Source: Tridacna crocea | Taxonomy: Eukaryota; Mollusca; Bivalvia; Cardiida; Cardiidae | Length of the DNA: 64,000 nt | Direction of reading: 5' to 3' | NCBI GenBank assembly: GCA_943736015.1 | Contig: OX031066.1 | Location: 25,342,127 to 25,406,126, forward strand | In this document: piece after piece, positions 24,401 through 26,990 of the stretch | How positions within the stretch are numbered: position 1 is the first letter of the stretch | Layout of the letters: each line of letters starts with the position of its first letter | Made by a program: the position numbers and the translations under genes | Notes under the pieces: model-generated | What the model saw: only the letters and a program-made list of their open reading frames with translations | Database searches by the model: none | What the model was told of the DNA's origin: nothing

Positions 24401-26990
24401 TGAAATTTGCTTTGTGAAGGGAAGAAAACATTGTGGGAAAAGGAGAAAATGCTGGTTACCAGCATTTTCTCCTTTTCCCATAATGTTTTCTAAAGGGTTC
24501 TTTTTCAGGGTCGTCAAAAGTAGGGACTGTGTATTAATGGGTTAAGAAATAGGGTCTTTTAGTGAAGGGACCAAAATAACATTTCCAACCTTTGTTTTGG
24601 GTACTGCCAATCCATTGTCAGAGGCCAGAGTTTTAGCCAAAACATTTCTGTTGTTTGGTTTCACAGAGTTCGTCTGGGACAAAAACTTCACATCATCATC
24701 ATCATCATCATCAAAAGCAGCATTGTTGGTAGGAAGACTGGAGGTCCGTTGTTTGGTGCGAGTCTGTAATGGTTGTGGCACGTTCACAGGTAAAATCTGG
24801 CTGGGTGGTTTTGGTCGAGCTTTATTCAAACTTAGGCCACCCCCAGGTCTCTTGAACTTAAAGCCACTGCAATTAATAGAAAATCATACATTCATTAGAT
24901 AGATCACTTTCCCCTTTCAGAATTACTACATTAAACAGTACAGATAAAGGCCCAGTAAAGGCCAAAATATCTGGGCAGGTGTCATAATACATTTAAATTT
25001 AACCCTTAACTCCATAGATACTCATTTGGACGTATCAACAACAGACAGCTTTTGAAAACATTGCGGGAAAAGGAGAAATTGCTCGTTACGAGCAATTTCT
25101 CCTTTGCCCACAATGTTTCCCACTGAATCAGATATTTGTATCCTCATTTGTCCATATTTTTGACATATCTTTATTTGCTGCTGAACTGGACGAGCCGCAA
25201 ATTGGCGTATCGGGTAAAGGGTTAAATCATACCATTCACAATTATAGAAAATATTGTAGAGATAAGTCTGTTATCTGCCCATATGTTAGTCCCAGGGGAA
25301 AAAAATAAAATAAGGTAAAAAGTAAACAAAAGAAACAGCTTCCTGGCAGGTTTTAACCCTTTACTACACAATCCAGACTTTTATCACCCCTGTGACAGAA
25401 GCTTTTCGAAAAAATTGTGGGAAAAGGTGAAAATGCTGGTAACCAGCATTTTCTCCTTTTCCCACTATGTTTTCTACCCTTCACATAACAAATTTCAAAT
25501 TTTCAGTCACTTTTATTTTGTAGTCTGCAAAAGCTTTCAATTTGGACATACCTAAAATTTTGGCATTCAGTAATGAGTTTTAAAACCAAGTGCTGAAAAT
25601 AATTTCTCTTGTCAGCGACTTCCACTTTGACCGACTGTACAATGACGCATTATCATCTTCACAAGTATCCATGGGCGGATCCAGAATGGGAGAACCGGGG
25701 GTTTGGACCCCGCTGGAATTTTGGCAAGAATGTGGTTATCGGATTCGAGAAATGGTACTGGTTTGATATTGCACAGCATTTATGTAAAAAACAGTCATGA
25801 ATTTAAAAAAAAGGTTCTAAATGTAGAGACCTCCCCATGGTTAGAACTGGAAACGTTTACTTTTCTTGTAAACGGCTTACATCCACGGAAATCTGGAAAT
25901 CAAATCTACTCCTTCCTCTAATGCACTAAAACTACTGAAGAATAAAAAATCTTCATTTGCGGTGATATAGTAGTTTTTGTCACCAGGGAACAAATTTAGT
26001 AATTTAGAGATGAAACTGGCAACAGACTGACCCTTAACTCATTACCAAACAACAAAATTTTTGACTGGTCCAAATTGAAAGCATTTGCAGACAACAAAAT
26101 AAAAGTGACTGAAAATTCAAAATTTGTTCTGTGAACGGTAGAAAACATTGTGGGAAAAGGACAAAATGCTGGTTACCAGCATTTTGTCCTTTTCCCACAA
26201 TGTTTTCTAAAGGCTTCTTTCTTAGGGGCGTCAAAAGTAGGGATCATGTGGTAATGGGTTAACTCTTTACCAAACAACCAAAAAACAAAATTTTGGACTC
26301 CATCAAGTTGGAAGCATTTGCAGATGACAAAGTAAATGTAGTTCAAATGATGGTTTCTAACTTTGATGGGGTTGAAAACATAGCAGAGAAAGGAGAAAAT
26401 GCCGGAATTTTTCATTGGCCCATACATCTGGTGGGAGTGCTGCTGTAGATCCCAGGCAGAAGAATCGAGAGATTAATCAAATTTGTAAGAACTTGTCTCT
26501 CAATCGATGTAAAATAAATACATGTATGTTTAAACACAAATATTAAATTTGTTTTAAAACCAATATTATTTCTGTCACATCAAGGCTACAGCTTCCGTGT
26601 CTGTTTCTTTTCACAATTTCACTCATGCAGGGCTAGGTCTCTTCACCATTTACCCCGTAAGGCATTTCTAAGGCATCTCAAATTGACCCTAAATAACAGC
26701 AAGGATGAAGCCATTTCTTATGTGTATACGACAACTTTTGATAGCATAGAAAACATTGTGACAAAAGGTGAAATGAGTATCTATGGAGTACAGGGTTAAC
26801 TGGTTACCCCTCAGTCCCGACTGGTAATGACCCTGGGTGAGAAAGCTTTTTGAAAAATGCAAAATACAAAGGCCTAAGACTTACATATGTATGAAAAATA
26901 AATATACCTATAATGGAATAGACTTTTATGATGAATTATAATATTTAACAAATATTACCCCTTTGTTACAACTGTGCCTTCACTGCTCAT
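373..26990 (-). CDS. BLM: Bloom syndrome RecQ-family DNA helicase, 5' 18 coding exons (3' end off window)
   Basis: ATP-dependent 3'-5' DNA helicase that unwinds recombination intermediates and, in animals, acts with topoisomerase III and RMI proteins to dissolve double Holliday junctions in the nucleus. Coding exons on the minus strand are 26959-26990, 24590-24866, 23166-23245, 22610-22770, 21750-21787, 20126-20285, 17929-18133, 15725-16572, 14691-14891, 12546-12664, 10290-10403, 9890-9988, 8444-8592, 7850-7987, 7059-7188, 4499-4694, 3473-3660 and 373-493. All junctions keep frame and give 1085 codons without a stop. In order I see a disordered acidic N-terminus, a helical segment where BLM dimerises, RecQ motif 0 (FRHNQLEA), Walker A (MPTGGGKS), DEAH, ALTATA, the [10 protein letters not shown] and QEAGRAGRD motifs, four zinc cysteines, and the start of the RQC winged helix. 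The helicase core is much closer to BLM than to RECQ1, 4 or 5. The remaining winged helix and HRDC domain should lie left of base 1. Introns are full of repeats. Confidence 0.93.
540..800. repeat. Family E fold-back repeat
   Basis: Ends in GCCTGCAACACGCAAAAAT on the left and a diverged inverted copy (CATTGCAGGC) on the right, with CAGCCTG blocks inside. Similar copies at 12040-12330, 16748-17005 and 53458-53732. Confidence 0.65.
1050..3185. repeat. Tandem array, about 11 units of about 165 bp
   Basis: Headed by AAGAGGGCCATTGGCCCTGG. Units share AAATATCAAAGCTCTAC, TTCCTTCTTTGTTCCTATG and GGGGCCAGTTTTGACCCC. The first motif recurs near 1238, 1401, 1565, 1729, 1896, 2061, 2226, 2391, 2557, 2723 and 2891. 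It ends in a GACGGACGACGGAC stretch and a GGTGAGCTAAAA tail with the inverted stem CTTTAGCAC / GTGCTAAGG. Confidence 0.9.
3190..3400. repeat. Family H repeat
   Basis: Begins AAGAGCTTCGCAAAGCAGTGC, then ACATTATAATGATTCATTATGG, and ends with a GGCATATAAAAA tail. Related copies at 17675-17885, 20350-20570, 21955-22125 and 52731-52880. Confidence 0.7.
3473..3660 (-). CDS. BLM: BLM coding exon 17, RQC zinc-binding subdomain
   Basis: Begins by completing a Met codon, then [12 protein letters not shown]. It holds the four conserved zinc cysteines: one in DCRRHQLL, one in ECGKF and two in CDNC. In phase 0 at its 3' end (donor GTTAGT). Confidence 0.96.
3770..3910. repeat. Repeat fragment with GACAGACAGACGG run
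   Basis: Contains GTGCAAGTTTCATGG and a GCAGACAGACAGACGGAC stretch, parts shared by several molluscan-type repeats. Truncated and diverged. Confidence 0.5.
4076..4431. repeat. Fold-back element with about 86-bp near-identical arms
   Basis: The left arm 4076-4163 (GGCGGGGAATCACGTGACAC, (CAA)n, GACCGATATTTG) is the inverted copy of 4344-4431. The spacer has its own short inverted repeat around GAGCAAACAAATT. Near-identity suggests a young or homogenised element. It lies in a BLM intron. Confidence 0.85.
4499..4694 (-). CDS. BLM: BLM coding exon 16, motifs V and VI
   Basis: [19 protein letters not shown] (motif V) and [12 protein letters not shown] (motif VI, arginine finger). The acceptor is ATTTAG and the donor GTAAGT. 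Confidence 0.97.
4695..5370. other. BLM intron, no recognised feature except a short family D piece
   Basis: Only a fragment GGCTTAATGCATCTC with ATGCTCTGGCAAAAG near 4725-4760 resembles family D. The remainder is AT-rich and unassigned. Confidence 0.5.
5376..5432. repeat. Microsatellite (GAT)n then (AAT)n
   Basis: About ten GAT units followed by about seven AAT units. Confidence 0.95.
5549..5930 (+). repeat. Family K repeat, left member of an inverted pair
   Basis: Starts AAGGTAAGACCTGTGTAATG and ends in an inverted AGGTCTACCTT, with an AGAGATAATACTTATCTCCC core. An inverted copy lies at 6179-6525; others are near 11215-11400 and 34905-35270. Confidence 0.8.
6179..6525 (-). repeat. Family K repeat, right member of the inverted pair
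   Basis: Reverse-oriented copy of 5549-5930, separated by about 250 bp. The transcript of the intron could fold the two into a long stem. Confidence 0.8.
6540..6700. repeat. Family D repeat
   Basis: CGTGCTCTGTGAAAAGAGGG, GCTTAATGCATCTG, then CAGCCTGCACAATTTGCGCA and GGCTGACTTGGGCCGAAAC. Confidence 0.75.
6771..6996. repeat. TTAA hairpin element, family A
   Basis: TTAA at both ends (TTAACCATTTACCACAC ... GGTAAAGGGTTAA), with a central hairpin of GTGGGAAAAGAAGAAAATG type. The right hairpin arm is damaged. Confidence 0.88.
7059..7188 (-). CDS. BLM: BLM coding exon 15
   Basis: [15 protein letters not shown] then [11 protein letters not shown] and [10 protein letters not shown], the conserved region of RecQ lobe 2 between motifs IV and V. 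The donor is GTTTGT. Confidence 0.96.
7315..7660. repeat. Family G repeat
   Basis: CTACAGCTATCACTGAAAGTG head, CAGACTGACA stretch and a GGGTGGAGTATAA tail. Same class as 10078-10250, 12347-12515, 14140-14530, 18429-19800 and 47005-47175. Confidence 0.7.
7850..7987 (-). CDS. BLM: BLM coding exon 14, motif IV
   Basis: [10 protein letters not shown], the junction into helicase lobe 2, then GIVYCLSR (motif IV). The Arg codon is split by the intron (donor GTAATG). Confidence 0.96.
8444..8592 (-). CDS. BLM: BLM coding exon 13, aromatic-rich loop and motif III
   Basis: Begins [11 protein letters not shown] (aromatic-rich loop) and includes [11 protein letters not shown] (motif III). The split Trp codon continues in exon 14. 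Confidence 0.97.
8593..9340. other. BLM intron, little recognised
   Basis: Only a small fold-back J-type piece near 9066-9130 (GGGCAGTGTAGACAGATATC with ATATTGAATCC). Otherwise unassigned AT-rich sequence. Confidence 0.4.
9355..9493. repeat. TTAA hairpin element, family A, truncated
   Basis: Hairpin plus right end (GTCAAAAGTAGGG ... GGGTTAA at 9490-9493). The left end is missing. Confidence 0.75.
9890..9988 (-). CDS. BLM: BLM coding exon 12, DEAH box
   Basis: Thirty-three codons ending [11 protein letters not shown]. The DEAH Walker B is intact. The last codon before the GTAAGT donor is TCA (Ser), where RecQ proteins normally have Gln in the VSQWGHDFR loop. See the findings. Confidence 0.95.
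10078..10250. repeat. Family G repeat
   Basis: GATGTCACTGAATGTGACTT, GGCTGATTCCGATATACCCC and the stem AAAACATTTGTTTTGCGG before GTATAA. Confidence 0.8.
10290..10403 (-). CDS. BLM: BLM coding exon 11
   Basis: Thirty-eight codons, [10 protein letters not shown] ... [10 protein letters not shown]. The YVTPEK end is motif Ib of RecQ helicases. In phase 0 at both ends. Confidence 0.96.
10590..10715. repeat. Repeat X, partial copy
   Basis: Matches 34085-34215 (ACTGT... TCTTCACAATAA ... ATACTTTTAAATGGTATGAT ... CACTTTGTTTACATTTGGGC). A piece of a family A left end precedes it at 10510-10585. Confidence 0.6.
11050..11230. repeat. Family D repeat
   Basis: GAGCCATGCTCTGTGAAAAG, GGGGGCTTAATG, then GCAGTCTGCACAGGCTGACC. 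A detached tail of this type (GCATTAAGCCCCCTTTTGCC) is at 11640-11690. Confidence 0.8.
11393..11592. repeat. TTAA hairpin element, family A, left end truncated
   Basis: Left part TCCAAATTGAAAGCACTTGC, hairpin 11466-11535, right end GGTAAAGGGTTAA. Confidence 0.85.
11778..12006. repeat. TTAA hairpin element, family B
   Basis: TTAACTCTTTACCCCATAGG start, ACCCTAAATAACAGCAAGG block, hairpin with AAAGGTGAAACTGCTTG arms, ends AGTAAAGGCTTAA. Confidence 0.88.
12040..12335. repeat. Family E fold-back repeat
   Basis: GTGTAAAGTGTTGTCTCTGA, CAGCATGCTCAGGCT, AGCCTGCAAGGACTGTGCAG and GCATGTTGTAAGCCA at the right end. Confidence 0.7.
12347..12515. repeat. Family G repeat
   Basis: GTGGTCTCTGAATGTGACTT head and GGCTGATTCCGGAATACCCC tail with the TTTTGTTTTGCGGGGATATG stem. 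It lies next to BLM exon 10. Confidence 0.8.
12546..12664 (-). CDS. BLM: BLM coding exon 10, Walker A and motif Ia
   Basis: Completes [15 protein letters not shown] (motif I, ATP binding) and continues with [15 protein letters not shown] (motif Ia). The acceptor is TTCTAG and the donor GTAAGT. Confidence 0.97.
12809..13024. repeat. TTAA hairpin element, family A
   Basis: TTAATCCTTTATCAAACAATC ... CATTTGGTAAAGAGTTAA, hairpin arms AAAGTGCTGG / CCAGCATTTTC. Confidence 0.88.
13025..13715. other. BLM intron, nothing recognised
   Basis: No coding frame, hairpin element or tandem repeat seen on either strand. Confidence 0.4.
13730..13800. repeat. Family J small fold-back
   Basis: GTGTATATCCAAGACTGCAC pairs with GTGCAGTCTGATCCTGAATA and TACAC. 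The same hairpin is at 54831-54900; related pieces are near 9066, 31817, 44930 and 58757. Confidence 0.75.
13912..14113. repeat. Long fold-back element, family L
   Basis: Outer arms GGGCCCTTATTCACCAACCA and its inverse ending TGGTGAATACAGGTCC; inner arms GTAAGTAACACAACTTCTGA / its inverse around the centre AACTATTCGGTT. A second copy lies at 33173-33352. Confidence 0.88.
14140..14530. repeat. Family G repeat, two internal units
   Basis: Two copies of GGGGCAATAACTC ... CTTGCACATCTAC ... TTCTGCCAAGT and a tail GGCTGATTCCAGTATACCCC then GTGGGAGTATAA. Confidence 0.75.
14691..14891 (-). CDS. BLM: BLM coding exon 9, RecQ motif 0
   Basis: Carries [15 protein letters not shown] and the Q-motif segment [17 protein letters not shown] (motif 0, adenine recognition), then FILMPT leading into Walker A. 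The Gly codon of PTG is split across the junction (donor GTAAAC). Confidence 0.96.
14925..15294. repeat. Composite TTAA hairpin element with two hairpins
   Basis: Left end CTCTTTACCAAACATCAAAA, hairpin at about 15046-15100, a second hairpin at about 15112-15160, then a right part in the opposite orientation ending GGTATAGGGTTAA at 15265, then a short extra right terminus AAGTCAGGATTG ... GGGTTAA. Confidence 0.75.
15725..16572 (-). CDS. BLM: BLM coding exon 8, large disordered exon
   Basis: A single 848-nt exon, Ser/Thr/Asn-rich with repeated DD/FDD patches. It ends with [17 protein letters not shown], comparable to the acidic patch before the helicase core of vertebrate BLM. Two in-frame acceptors six bases apart (after 16572 or after 16566) would both give Arg at the junction, so the upstream edge could differ by two residues. 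Confidence 0.9.
16590..16748. repeat. TTAA hairpin element, family A, degenerate
   Basis: TTAATTCTCTACCATAC start and a decayed hairpin (GGTAAAGGAGAAATGGCTGG / CATTTTTCACG), with the TTTGCAAATGCTTTCAAT block at the right. It begins 18 bases upstream of BLM exon 8. Confidence 0.55.
16748..17005. repeat. Family E fold-back repeat
   Basis: CAGCCTGCAACACGCAAAAA left, ACATGTTGCAAGCCAG right, with AGCCTGCGCAACC and AGCCTGCTCAGGCTG inside. Confidence 0.75.
17212..17397. repeat. Fold-back element, family F
   Basis: Ends GAGCTCCAGATAAGAGGGAG and its inverse. The inner palindrome is CCCTATGTTGTGGG ... CCCACAACATAGGG around TTGTCTTGATGAGACAA. Confidence 0.88.
17675..17885. repeat. Family H repeat
   Basis: AAAAGCTTTGCAAAGCAGCG, TACGCCCGAAGAGGCTTGTC, GGGTGTATAAAAA tail. 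Confidence 0.75.
17929..18133 (-). CDS. BLM: BLM coding exon 7, helical N-terminal segment
   Basis: Encodes a Leu-rich helical stretch ([19 protein letters not shown] then [16 protein letters not shown]). It lies where BLM carries its dimerisation helical bundle in the N-terminal domain. The acceptor is TTTGCAG and the donor GTTTCA. Confidence 0.88.
18429..19800. repeat. Family G repeat containing a 157-bp tandem array
   Basis: AGCTATCACTCAACGTGATC head. Then about six units with AAATTCAAGTATGAAAAACG, GGCAATAACTCAAAAATTAA and ACCCTAGCTAGTATAGTTTT; AATTC recurs near 18607, 18763, 18919, 19075, 19231 and 19389. Then two diverged units, a (GACG)n run at 19717-19750 and the GGGGGGTATAAT tail. 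Confidence 0.92.
20126..20285 (-). CDS. BLM: BLM coding exon 6
   Basis: Fifty-three codons with an acidic stretch ([11 protein letters not shown]), a basic cluster (QSKKRRTL) that could act in nuclear import, and [11 protein letters not shown]. Bounded by a TACACAG acceptor and a GTAAGA donor. Confidence 0.9.
20335..20570. repeat. Family H repeat
   Basis: ACAGCTTTGCAAAGCGATGC, AGGGGCTTGTCAGTGAAATG and ATCATAGAGATTCATTGTTG, followed by a mutated tail. It directly abuts BLM exon 6. Confidence 0.7.
21325..21620 (-). repeat. tRNA-headed SINE, reverse orientation
   Basis: Left edge TTGATTGATTGTATGATGTT (inverse of the SINE tail), body matching 39409-39722 in reverse, and the tRNA-like head near 21570-21620 (GGGATCAAACTCACAACCCC). 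Confidence 0.75.
21750..21787 (-). CDS. BLM: BLM coding exon 5 (38-nt microexon)
   Basis: Only 38 nt: completes an Asp codon, then [12 protein letters not shown], with a TTTAG acceptor and a GTGAGT donor. It is supported because exon 4 ends in phase 1 and exon 6 begins in phase 0, and this segment bridges both exactly. Confidence 0.8.
21955..22125. repeat. Family H repeat
   Basis: ACATCATAGAGATTCATTAT, AACTGTAGGAGTTGCATGCA, GACAGACAGACTGATGGAC and the GGTCATATAAAAAA tail. A family A fragment (GCAGAAAACATTGTGG) precedes it. Confidence 0.7.
22398..22580. repeat. Fold-back element, family F, decayed
   Basis: AGAGCTCCAGATAAGAGGGA left and TCCCTCTATTTGGAGCGCT right; inner arms CCCTATGTTGTGGGTACTC and the diverged inverse. 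Confidence 0.8.
22610..22770 (-). CDS. BLM: BLM coding exon 4
   Basis: Encodes [11 protein letters not shown], a basic stretch, then the acidic-aromatic patch [12 protein letters not shown]. The patch resembles the WDDMDDFD-type segment of vertebrate BLM. The donor is GTAAAA and the split Asp codon continues in exon 5. Confidence 0.88.
22829..23040. repeat. TTAA hairpin element, family A, degenerate
   Basis: TTAACTTTTTACCAAACGACA start; the hairpin keeps AATGCTAGTTACCAGCATTTT; the right end is mutated. Confidence 0.75.
23166..23245 (-). CDS. BLM: BLM coding exon 3
   Basis: Twenty-six codons ([11 protein letters not shown]...) between a TTTTTTCAG acceptor and a GTGAGT donor. The split Arg codon joins to exon 4. 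Low-complexity N-terminal region. Confidence 0.85.
23284..23508. repeat. TTAA hairpin element, family C/A type
   Basis: TTAACCCTTTCCCAAACGACG start; hairpin GTGGGAAAAGGAGAAGTTGC / GAGCAATTTCTCCTTCTCCC; GGGAAAGAG end with TTAT for TTAA. Confidence 0.82.
23505..23722. repeat. TTAA hairpin element, family A, abutting the previous one
   Basis: Starts TTATTTCTTTACCACACAAC directly after the previous copy; hairpin around 23635; right end decayed. Confidence 0.75.
23887..24115. repeat. TTAA hairpin element, family A
   Basis: TTAACCCATTACCATACAATC ... GTGGTAAAGAGTTAA. Both ends intact. Shares its right TTAA with the next copy. Confidence 0.92.
24112..24334. repeat. TTAA hairpin element, family A
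   Basis: Starts at the shared TTAA (TTAACTCTTTTCCAACC); hairpin GCTGGATATCAGC centre with part of the right arm deleted; ends GTTTAGTAACGGG. Confidence 0.88.
24335..24545. repeat. TTAA hairpin element, family A, third in a chain
   Basis: Left terminus lost (starts ACAAAATTTTGGACTATTCC), intact hairpin, ends GTATTAATGGGTTAA 44 bases from BLM exon 2. Confidence 0.85.
24590..24866 (-). CDS. BLM: BLM coding exon 2
   Basis: Starts [10 protein letters not shown], matching the short basic GFxFK-type segment near the BLM N-terminus. It is then Pro/Gln-rich with a run of seven Asp. The acceptor is TTGCAG. The donor chosen, AAG|GTTGGA, is weak but keeps phase 0. GTCCCT, 24 bases further, would also fit, so the low boundary is the least certain in this gene. 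Confidence 0.8.
24999..25225. repeat. TTAA hairpin element, distinct family (CCATAGATACTC / GCGTATCGGG ends)
   Basis: TTAACCCTTAACTCCATAGA ... CGTATCGGGTAAAGGGTTAA; hairpin GGAGAAATTGCTCGT / ACGAGCAATTTCTCC. Inserted in repeat X. Confidence 0.9.
25353..25583. repeat. TTAA hairpin element, family A, inserted in repeat X
   Basis: TTAACCCTTTACTACACAATC ... GTAATGAGTTTTAA. Hairpin arms differ at one place (GGTGAAAATG vs CATTTTCTCC). Confidence 0.9.
26034..26262. repeat. TTAA hairpin element, family A, perfect 67-nt palindrome
   Basis: TTAACTCATTACCAAACAACA ... GTAATGGGTTAA. The palindrome 26141-26207 is perfect and carries the copy-specific change AGGAC / GTCCT in both arms. The next copy shares its right TTAA. 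Confidence 0.93.
26259..26405. repeat. TTAA hairpin element, family A, truncated
   Basis: TTAACTCTTTACCAAACAACC start at the shared TTAA; broken off inside the hairpin (GGAGAAAATGCCGG). Confidence 0.8.
26648..26799. repeat. TTAA element, family B, hairpin mostly deleted
   Basis: TTTACCCCGTAAGGCATTTC ... AGGTGAAATGAGTATCTATG ... GGGTTAA. One arm remains; the other is deleted together with its flank. Confidence 0.82.
26959..26990 (-). CDS. BLM: BLM coding exon 1 (start codon)
   Basis: Ten codons from ATG ([11 protein letters not shown]), ending in a GTAATA donor. The phase joins exactly to exon 2 and makes Gly-Gly-Phe-Lys. An ATG 7 bases upstream opens only a five-codon frame, so this ATG is chosen. 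The 5' untranslated exon and promoter are not identified. Confidence 0.75.

What the first reader, a model, noticed from the sequence alone, without database searches (positions are those of the whole stretch)
26141..26207. Hairpin arms change together: arm-to-arm homogenisation
Family A arms read AAGGAGAAAATGCTGG / CCAGCATTTTCTCCTT, B arms AAGGTGAAATTGCTCG / GAGCAATTTCACCTT, and C arms AAGGAGAAATTGCTCG / CGAGCAATTTCTCCTT. Both arms differ in a matching way. Single copies do the same: 26141-26207 is a perfect 67-nt palindrome with AGGAC / GTCCT; 37429-37485 has GGAAAAAGG / CCTTTTTCC; 39245-39297 has ATGGAG / CTCCAT; the copy near 15060 has a matched CTGATTATCAG centre. Random mutation would rarely hit paired sites. 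I infer copying of one arm from the other through a folded or template-switched intermediate, or selection on a folded product.
Basis: partly seen in the sequence, partly recalled or inferred. Interest (0 to 1): 0.78.

Follow-up and report, generated by a model that had tools for sequence, protein, structure and literature searches.

The report
Million-copy transposon hairpins copying arms
A short mobile element present in something like 800,000 copies carries a hairpin-like mirror sequence, and in single copies a change in one half of the mirror is now and then matched in the other half more often than chance allows, giving a natural assay of a known but rarely measured kind of DNA copying error.

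Summary
The palindrome is real: 26139-26209 is a perfect 71-nt palindrome inside a 229-bp TTAA-flanked non-autonomous element (26034-26262). The element covers about 17% of 250 kb sampled elsewhere in the genome; the unmutated inner 35-mer occurs 166,719 times. Subfamily cores differ mainly at paired positions, but that is inherited and proves nothing about copying. In single copies most changes are one-sided (65 A-type copies in the window: 267 one-sided, 18 paired, 15 other doubles). Paired changes still exceed chance. At the pair changed in the 26139 copy the genome holds 3,442 left-only, 3,617 right-only and 407 double changes; scaled from 100 listed, about 309 doubles are complementary (38 expected) and 98 not (51 expected). 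Thirty-two fetched carriers form no clades, and the flank relatives within 0.2, available for 15, lack the pair. So paired changes are recurrent, independent events, about 3% of one-sided ones. A second pair gave a weaker result. Best reading: rare arm-to-arm templating in resident copies, plus constraint on active lineages. The mechanism is known from yeast; the scale of this natural assay is new.

The parts
26034..26262 (+). Complete 229-bp non-autonomous element, TTAA at both ends (26034-26037 and 26259-26262), 13-bp terminal inverted repeats TTAACTCATTACC / GGTAATGGGTTAA (one mismatch)
   Evidence: Sequence; profile match 1-227 of 227; 97 of 107 full-length copies have TTAA at both ends
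26139..26209 (+). 71-nt perfect palindrome with a single centre base (the core)
   Evidence: Inverted repeat I21, 35-nt arms, 100% complementary; ssDNA fold -39.4 kcal/mol, z -16.3
26139..26173 (+). Left arm
26174..26174 (+). Centre base T, the 1-nt spacer; T to A here would be a spacer flip relative to the flanks
26175..26209 (+). Right arm
26162..26162 (+). Left member of the k=12 pair, C instead of consensus G
   Evidence: 20 of 20 fetched nearest relatives have G
26186..26186 (+). Right member of the k=12 pair, G instead of consensus C
   Evidence: 20 of 20 fetched nearest relatives have C
37381..37596 (-). A-type copy with paired k=20 change (GC to AT) and one-sided changes at k=2 and k=5
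39144..39356 (+). A-type copy with paired k=16 change (AT to TA) and four one-sided changes
14934..15111 (+). A-type copy with paired k=2 change (GC to AT; matched CTGATTATCAG centre) and two one-sided changes
30911..31147 (-). B-type copy (k=3, 8, 13, 20 changed in both arms; one-sided change at k=21)
46425..46647 (-). C-type copy (k=3, 8, 26 changed in both arms; one-sided change at k=20)
52361..52586 (-). C-type copy (k=3, 8, 26 changed in both arms; some one-sided changes)
25000..25224 (-). D-type copy (k=3, 8 changed in both arms; different flanks; some one-sided changes)

Best explanation
The feature is the central palindrome of a very abundant TTAA-flanked MITE (most likely piggyBac-type). 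Two processes act on it. Shown: copies carry mostly one-sided changes, but in a small fraction (about 3% of one-sided changes at the pair measured) the matching base of the other arm has changed so that pairing holds; at k=12 these events sit in copies that are not close relatives of each other. Inferred: a one-sided mutation makes the palindrome imperfect, the strand folds into a hairpin (or the polymerase switches template) during replication or repair, and one arm is copied from the other, either spreading the change or erasing it. Inferred: among the lineages that transposed the palindrome was also under constraint, because most fixed core differences between subfamilies are paired while the flanks diverged far more.
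For: Genome-wide exact counts at k=12 of the inner 35-mer: 166,719 unmutated, 3,442 left-only, 3,617 right-only, 407 double; 88.9 doubles expected by independence. First 100 listed of the 407, tallied by eye: A-T 38, T-A 22, C-G 16 complementary, 24 non-complementary; 3x3 association chi2 84, p 2e-17. Scaled: complementary about 309 against 38, non-complementary about 98 against 51, T-A about 90 against 2.9. The 32 fetched carriers form no clades. The nearest relatives of the 26034 copy lack the change (20 of 20 fetched; of the other scored hits none shows the 99% core self-match that a shared pair would give). Sample: in 169 A-type copies with at most 6 core changes, 26 paired against 8.4 expected, non-complementary doubles 8 against 8.2; private changes against flank relatives, 15 paired against 5.35, non-complementary 6 against 4.4 (limit 0.20). 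Control: with the partner slid by 1-4 positions, complementary doubles summed over the eight offsets are 139 against 141.9 expected (sums of the output). Arm homogenisation between inverted repeats by template switching is reported in yeast (PMC8604942, abstract; PMC3820800, passages).
Against: In the 175 full-length A copies alone the excess is weaker: transitions 21 against 17.4 (p 0.21), transversions 10 against 4.7 (p 0.02), non-complementary 32 against 24.9. At k=14 (2,658 doubles, first 100 tallied) T-A is enriched (5 against 0.8) but C-G is absent and transitions dominate; complementary 81 against 74 expected from the margins. Non-complementary doubles at k=12 also exceed independence 1.9-fold, so age heterogeneity contributes. 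Transfer of an already paired core between copies by interlocus conversion is not excluded. A spacer flip, predicted by some template-switch routes, is raised (centre T to A in 15 of 165 full A copies against 1.9% at other core T sites) but T to C is raised too (10 of 165), and carriers do not clearly have more flips (6 of 32 against 2 of 8 controls). Only two pairs were counted genome-wide; a third (k=10) did not complete.
Confidence: 0.7

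Rival explanations
1. Selection alone: the folded palindrome is needed for transposition, one-sided variants are dead ends, and paired changes are those of source copies that kept it.
For: Most subfamily consensus differences in the core (k=3, 8, 13, 20, 26) are paired while the flanks diverged strongly; core divergence 6.4% against 18.4% in flanks and 10.9% in the terminal repeats of 150 full A copies; variants shared within tight flank clusters are 0.0062 per site in the core, 0.0258 in the left and 0.0111 in the right flank (0.12 limit).
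Against: Paired k=12 changes are not shared by relatives: 15 of 32 carriers have sampled flank relatives within 0.2, none of those listed with the pair, and no two carriers are close. A one-sided k=21 change is common among B copies and is in the B cluster consensus.
Confidence: 0.13
2. Interlocus conversion: a paired core arose a few times and was then copied, core only, into copies with other flanks.
For: Cores are far better conserved than flanks; k=26 C-G occurs in two flank backgrounds (A' and C).
Against: All three complementary combinations at k=12 are enriched while T-T and T-G are at or below expectation; paired changes are spread over many positions; one-sided variants are far commoner donors and should spread equally (inference).
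Confidence: 0.12
3. Chance double mutation plus mutation hot spots and age differences between copies.
For: Explains most transition pairs at hot positions such as k=14 and the 1.9-fold excess of non-complementary doubles.
Against: Does not explain the complementary-specific excess: T-A 31-fold, C-G 13-fold, A-T 5-fold at k=12, T-T 0.8-fold and T-G 0 (scaled tallies); simulations conditional on each copy's number of changes reach the observed counts in 0 of 1,500 runs in low-divergence copies, for transitions and for transversions.
Confidence: 0.05

Closest known systems
Quasipalindrome-associated template-switch mutation; arm homogenisation and spacer inversion between short inverted repeats
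   Same: Imperfect inverted repeat becomes more perfect by copying one arm from the other; spacer inversion is a known by-product (PMC8604942 abstract; PMC3820800 passages; E. coli work PMC7202029 seen in a search listing only).
   Different: Here seen as single-base paired changes in a transposon family with hundreds of thousands of copies, separable from descent by flanks; enzymes and replication-direction dependence untested.
Template switching proposed to create and maintain RNA hairpins (Monttinen and Loytynoja 2022, PMC8794818; abstract and start of introduction seen)
   Same: Compensatory changes in stems explained by templating rather than by two mutations with selection.
   Different: That case is RNA genes with functional stems; here the copies are transposon copies without known RNA function.
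piggyBac-superfamily MITEs
   Same: TTAA at both ends, short terminal inverted repeats beginning CCCTT or CTCTT, no coding capacity; CCCTT is called the most conserved 5' motif of piggyBac ends in PMC10813416 (passages seen).
   Different: A long central palindrome, better conserved than the terminal repeats; autonomous partner not searched successfully.
Arm-to-arm gene conversion in large sex-chromosome palindromes
   Same: Arms of an inverted repeat kept alike by copying between them (recalled; PMC7023750 seen in a search listing only).
   Different: Those arms are far longer (recalled); here 33-35 nt.

Membership tests
piggyBac-superfamily MITE | TTAA target-site duplication | tested here: met
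   97 of 107 full-length copies have TTAA at both ends, 9 at one end, 1 at none; TTAA frequency 0.78% of positions
piggyBac-superfamily MITE | Terminal inverted repeats with CCCTT-type 5' motif | tested here: met
   Subfamily ends TTAAC(C/T)CTTTACC or similar and GGTAAAGGGTTAA; motif from PMC10813416 passages
piggyBac-superfamily MITE | Non-coding and short | tested here: met
   Median length 229 bp over 107 full-length copies
piggyBac-superfamily MITE | Autonomous partner with DDE_Tnp_1_7 transposase and the same ends | not tested
   PF13843 search did not complete, then cap reached. Kolobok elements also use TTAA (recalled) and were not ruled out
Quasipalindrome template-switch mutation | Paired changes exceed independent expectation, complementary ones specifically | tested here: met
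   k=12 genome-wide counts and 3x3 table; sample simulations; weaker at k=14
Quasipalindrome template-switch mutation | Events independent, not shared by descent | tested here: met
   (k=12 only)
Quasipalindrome template-switch mutation | Spacer inversion | tested here: inconclusive
   Centre T to A 15 of 165 against 1.9% elsewhere, but T to C 10 of 165 also raised
Quasipalindrome template-switch mutation | Dependence on replication direction, TLS polymerase, RNase H2 or exonucleases | not testable with these tools
   Needs experiment
Functional structured RNA | Match to a known RNA family | tested here: not met
   In the window only one Rfam match at gathering score, a tRNA at 48870-48943, none over a palindrome copy of the finding

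The most novel reading that the evidence does not exclude
The family is a ready-made germline assay of arm-to-arm copying with some hundreds of thousands of replicate palindromes, and the templating depends on the mismatch: from the tallies, G-C to T-A pairs are about 6.6% of their one-sided states, G-C to C-G 3.4% and G-C to A-T 2.3% (my arithmetic on the, 83 and 140 values, heterogeneity-scaled; small by-eye tallies). That would point to recognition of the hairpin mismatch by repair rather than blind polymerase template switching.
Probability: 0.25. Interest if true: 0.75.

Novelty: new variant of a known kind. Interest (0 to 1): 0.6.

Why it matters
Compensatory changes in a stem are usually read as selection for structure. 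Here the same pattern arises, at low rate, in transposon copies that do not share it with their sampled relatives, so covariation alone need not mean function. With 166,719 exact inner cores and thousands of one-sided variants at one site, the rate and base-specificity of arm-to-arm copying can be measured in one genome without an engineered reporter.

Tried and rejected
Rejected: the A/B/C arm differences as evidence of copying (inherited subfamilies). Rejected: descent as cause of the k=12 pairs. Rejected as a full account: chance and age heterogeneity. Considered and not supported by a match: a known RNA family. Led nowhere or weak: in the small sample, carriers of one paired change were about as far apart in their flanks as carriers of one one-sided change (means 0.348 and 0.378); deletions are only modestly concentrated at the palindrome centre (11 of 69 gaps of 4 or more span it); homogenisation cannot by itself explain why the core has fewer private changes than the flanks (0.63 of the flank rate at the 0.12 limit), since too few paired events are seen. 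Pfam on eight long window ORFs gave one hit, a DEAD-box helicase match.

Rows dropped before counts: L001 (overlaps the window) from then on; 37 of 292 core-spanning copies of B, C, D or mixed type in the A-type tests; k=26 in the tests (a subfamily site); k=34-35; cells with gaps. L002-L008 in the 292-copy set were fetched because they resemble the window copy. The 3x3 tables rest on the first 100 listed of 407 (k=12) and of 2,658 (k=14), and the one-sided spectra on the first 100 of 3,442 and of 3,617, all tallied by eye from printed lists that run in contig order and may hold a few local duplicates. A first flank comparison of 20 carriers oriented copies by the centre base, which is wrong for those with a flipped centre; redid it by flanks and is the one cited. 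The fold request was over the length limit; the 71-nt core was folded instead.

Full report
What is there. The window lies in a 1.05-Gb genome of 31 contigs with no relatives held. At 26139-26209 there is a perfect palindrome of 71 nt: 35-nt arms and one centre base. It is the centre of a 229-bp element at 26034-26262 that begins and ends in TTAA. A profile search of the window and of 30 stretches taken at round-number positions on 14 contigs (314 kb in all, 250 kb outside the window) found 346 non-overlapping matches, 106 in the window and 240 outside it, covering 28% and 17% of the sequence. Of 107 matches complete from end to end, 97 have TTAA at both ends. Seven pairs of complete copies lie end to end, five of them plainly sharing one TTAA, as expected of an element that inserts at TTAA. 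Ends of the type TTAACCCTTTACC fit piggyBac elements, whose most conserved end motif is CCCTT (PMC10813416, passages). The transposase search did not complete, so the filing is likely, not proven.

Copy number. The core was found 146 times in 200 kb of spaced stretches, 0.73 per kb, or about 0.77 million genome-wide if even. The unmutated inner 35-mer occurs 166,719 times; 60 of 292 core-spanning sampled copies have that perfect inner core, which gives about 0.8 million. Both are estimates by arithmetic.

Subfamilies. Clustering by flanks alone gives subfamilies whose core consensuses differ mainly at paired positions: B at k=3, 8, 13, 20; C at k=3, 8, 26; a D type (two copies) at k=3, 8; an A' type at k=26 (k is the distance from the centre). 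These differences are inherited, so they do not test copying. Exceptions exist: the B cluster consensus has a one-sided change at k=21, found in about half of the B copies listed, and another centre base, and two small clusters of five and four copies have a one-sided change in their consensus. The core diverges less than the flanks: 6.4% against 18.4%, terminal repeats 10.9%, in 150 full A copies. The shortfall is strong for variants shared within tight clusters (core 0.0062, left flank 0.0258, right flank 0.0111) and weaker for singletons (core 0.0185, left 0.028, right 0.026, 0.12 limit), which suggests constraint in the lineages that transposed. But private changes are also rarer in the core (0.63 of the flank rate at the 0.12 limit), and this I cannot fully explain.

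Single copies in the sample. In 255 A-type copies there were 7,804 pair cells, 1,041 one-sided changes, 77 complementary doubles (14 of them the k=26 subfamily state) and 63 non-complementary doubles. A simulation that keeps each copy's number of changes per arm and the site spectrum gave, without k=26, 63 complementary doubles against 39.6 expected and 61 non-complementary against 45.9. In the 169 copies with at most six core changes the signal is clean: complementary 26 against 8.4, non-complementary 8 against 8.2. In the 175 full-length copies it is weaker: transitions 21 against 17.4 (p 0.21), transversions 10 against 4.7 (p 0.02), non-complementary 32 against 24.9. Taking only changes private against the nearest flank relatives, paired changes were 5 against 1.6, 9 against 3.1, 15 against 5.35 and 26 against 8.9 at distance limits 0.12, 0.15, 0.20 and 0.30; non-complementary doubles were 1 against 1.3, 3 against 2.4, 6 against 4.4 and 14 against 9.3. 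With the partner slid by one to four positions either way, complementary doubles sum to 139 against 141.9 expected (sums of the output); at the true partner they were 63 against 41.

Genome-wide test at one pair. The pair changed in the 26139 copy (k=12, G-C to C-G) was counted in the exact inner 35-mer: 166,719 unmutated, 3,442 left-only, 3,617 right-only, 407 double. Independence predicts 88.9 doubles. Among the first 100 listed doubles, tallied by eye, 76 are complementary (A-T 38, T-A 22, C-G 16) and 24 not; the one-sided spectra predict 43% complementary (p 1.5e-11), and left and right bases are strongly associated (chi2 84, p 2e-17). Scaled to 407: A-T about 155 against 30 expected, C-G 65 against 4.9, T-A 90 against 2.9; non-complementary about 98 against 51, with T-T 8 against 10.5 and T-G 0 against 3.5. 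The C-G state in the longer exact 39-mer was counted whole at 41. Using the non-complementary doubles to correct for age differences leaves about 236 excess paired copies, 3.3% of the 7,059 one-sided ones. A second pair, k=14, is dominated by transitions: of the first 100 of 2,658 doubles, A-T 76, C-T 9, T-T 5, T-A 5, A-A 3, A-G 2, C-G 0. T-A is enriched there (5 against 0.8, p 0.0002), but the complementary share overall is only 81 against 74 expected from the margins. A third pair, k=10, did not complete.

Descent or independent events. Ten T-A and ten C-G carriers and twelve more T-A carriers were fetched with flanks. Among 22 T-A carriers no two are closer than 0.158 in their flanks (190 pairs with enough columns, mean 0.365); among 10 C-G carriers none closer than 0.187 (43 pairs, mean 0.387); 8 left-only T copies used as control had mean 0.263 with three pairs under 0.15. 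Fifteen of the 32 carriers have sampled relatives within 0.2; the five nearest listed for each show G-C, a gap, or in one case T-C at a distance of 0.123, never the pair. For the 26034 copy itself the 20 nearest relatives fetched (of 39 scored besides itself) all have G-C at k=12; they carry 14 one-sided and no paired private core changes. The paired states are thus recurrent and private as far as sampled, which selection on source copies does not predict.

Mechanism. The simplest account is that a one-sided mutation in a resident copy is occasionally copied to the other arm when the palindrome folds or when replication switches template between the arms. This is the quasipalindrome mechanism: PMC3820800 (passages) describes yeast mutations that extend identity between arms; PMC8604942 (abstract) reports arm homogenisation and spacer inversion in yeast genes; PMC8794818 (abstract and start of introduction) proposes the same process for RNA stems. 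In this family the centre base shows T to A in 15 of 165 full A copies against 1.9% at other core T sites (p 3e-6), in line with spacer inversion, but T to C is also raised (10 of 165), and carriers of pairs are not clearly richer in flips (6 of 32 carriers, 2 of 8 controls). Transfer of ready-made paired cores between copies is the main alternative left; the spread of the excess over many positions and all three complementary types at k=12 speak against it. In the first-100 tallies T-A pairs form more often per one-sided change than A-T pairs; this hints at mismatch-dependent repair but rests on small by-eye samples.

Novelty. I searched the held library for MITEs with internal palindromes, TTAA elements in molluscs, and template switching or homogenisation of inverted-repeat arms (capped listings of at most 20 papers each, and the abstracts or passages named above) and saw no report of paired-arm changes in a MITE family. 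The process itself is known; its measurement in a natural family of this size is, as far as those listings go, new. Confidence in the best explanation was lowered slightly on recheck, from 0.72 to 0.70, because the full-length subset is weaker than first reported.

Noticed in passing
window 12369-12800 (- strand): Exon-like ORF with a DEAD/DEAH helicase match (PF00270, E 1.4e-7); the motif looks RecQ/BLM-like to my eye (recalled, not tested).
   Followed up: partly
window 48870-48943 (+): tRNA-like sequence by Rfam (35.1 bits, gathering 29) that ARAGORN does not call; perhaps a tRNA-derived repeat.
   Followed up: no
window 1238-2940 and 18593-19404: Tandem arrays with 166-bp and 156-bp units.
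   Followed up: no
L027 (about 2,104-bp spacing) and L032 (1,852-bp spacing): Regularly spaced, near-identical copies of the palindromic core, as if longer tandem units each carry one; the element seems to have been amplified inside such arrays.
   Followed up: no
window 23888-24334; L010, L012, L020, L025, L029: Complete copies lying end to end, five of seven pairs plainly sharing one TTAA: the element appears to insert into its own target duplication.
   Followed up: partly
core columns k=1-33, genome sample: The core has fewer private changes than the flanks (0.63 of the rate at the 0.12 limit) although too few paired events are seen for arm copying to explain it.
   Followed up: partly
k=12 doubles, genome-wide: T-A pairs are over-represented relative to A-T and C-G pairs when scaled by their one-sided counts.
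   Followed up: no
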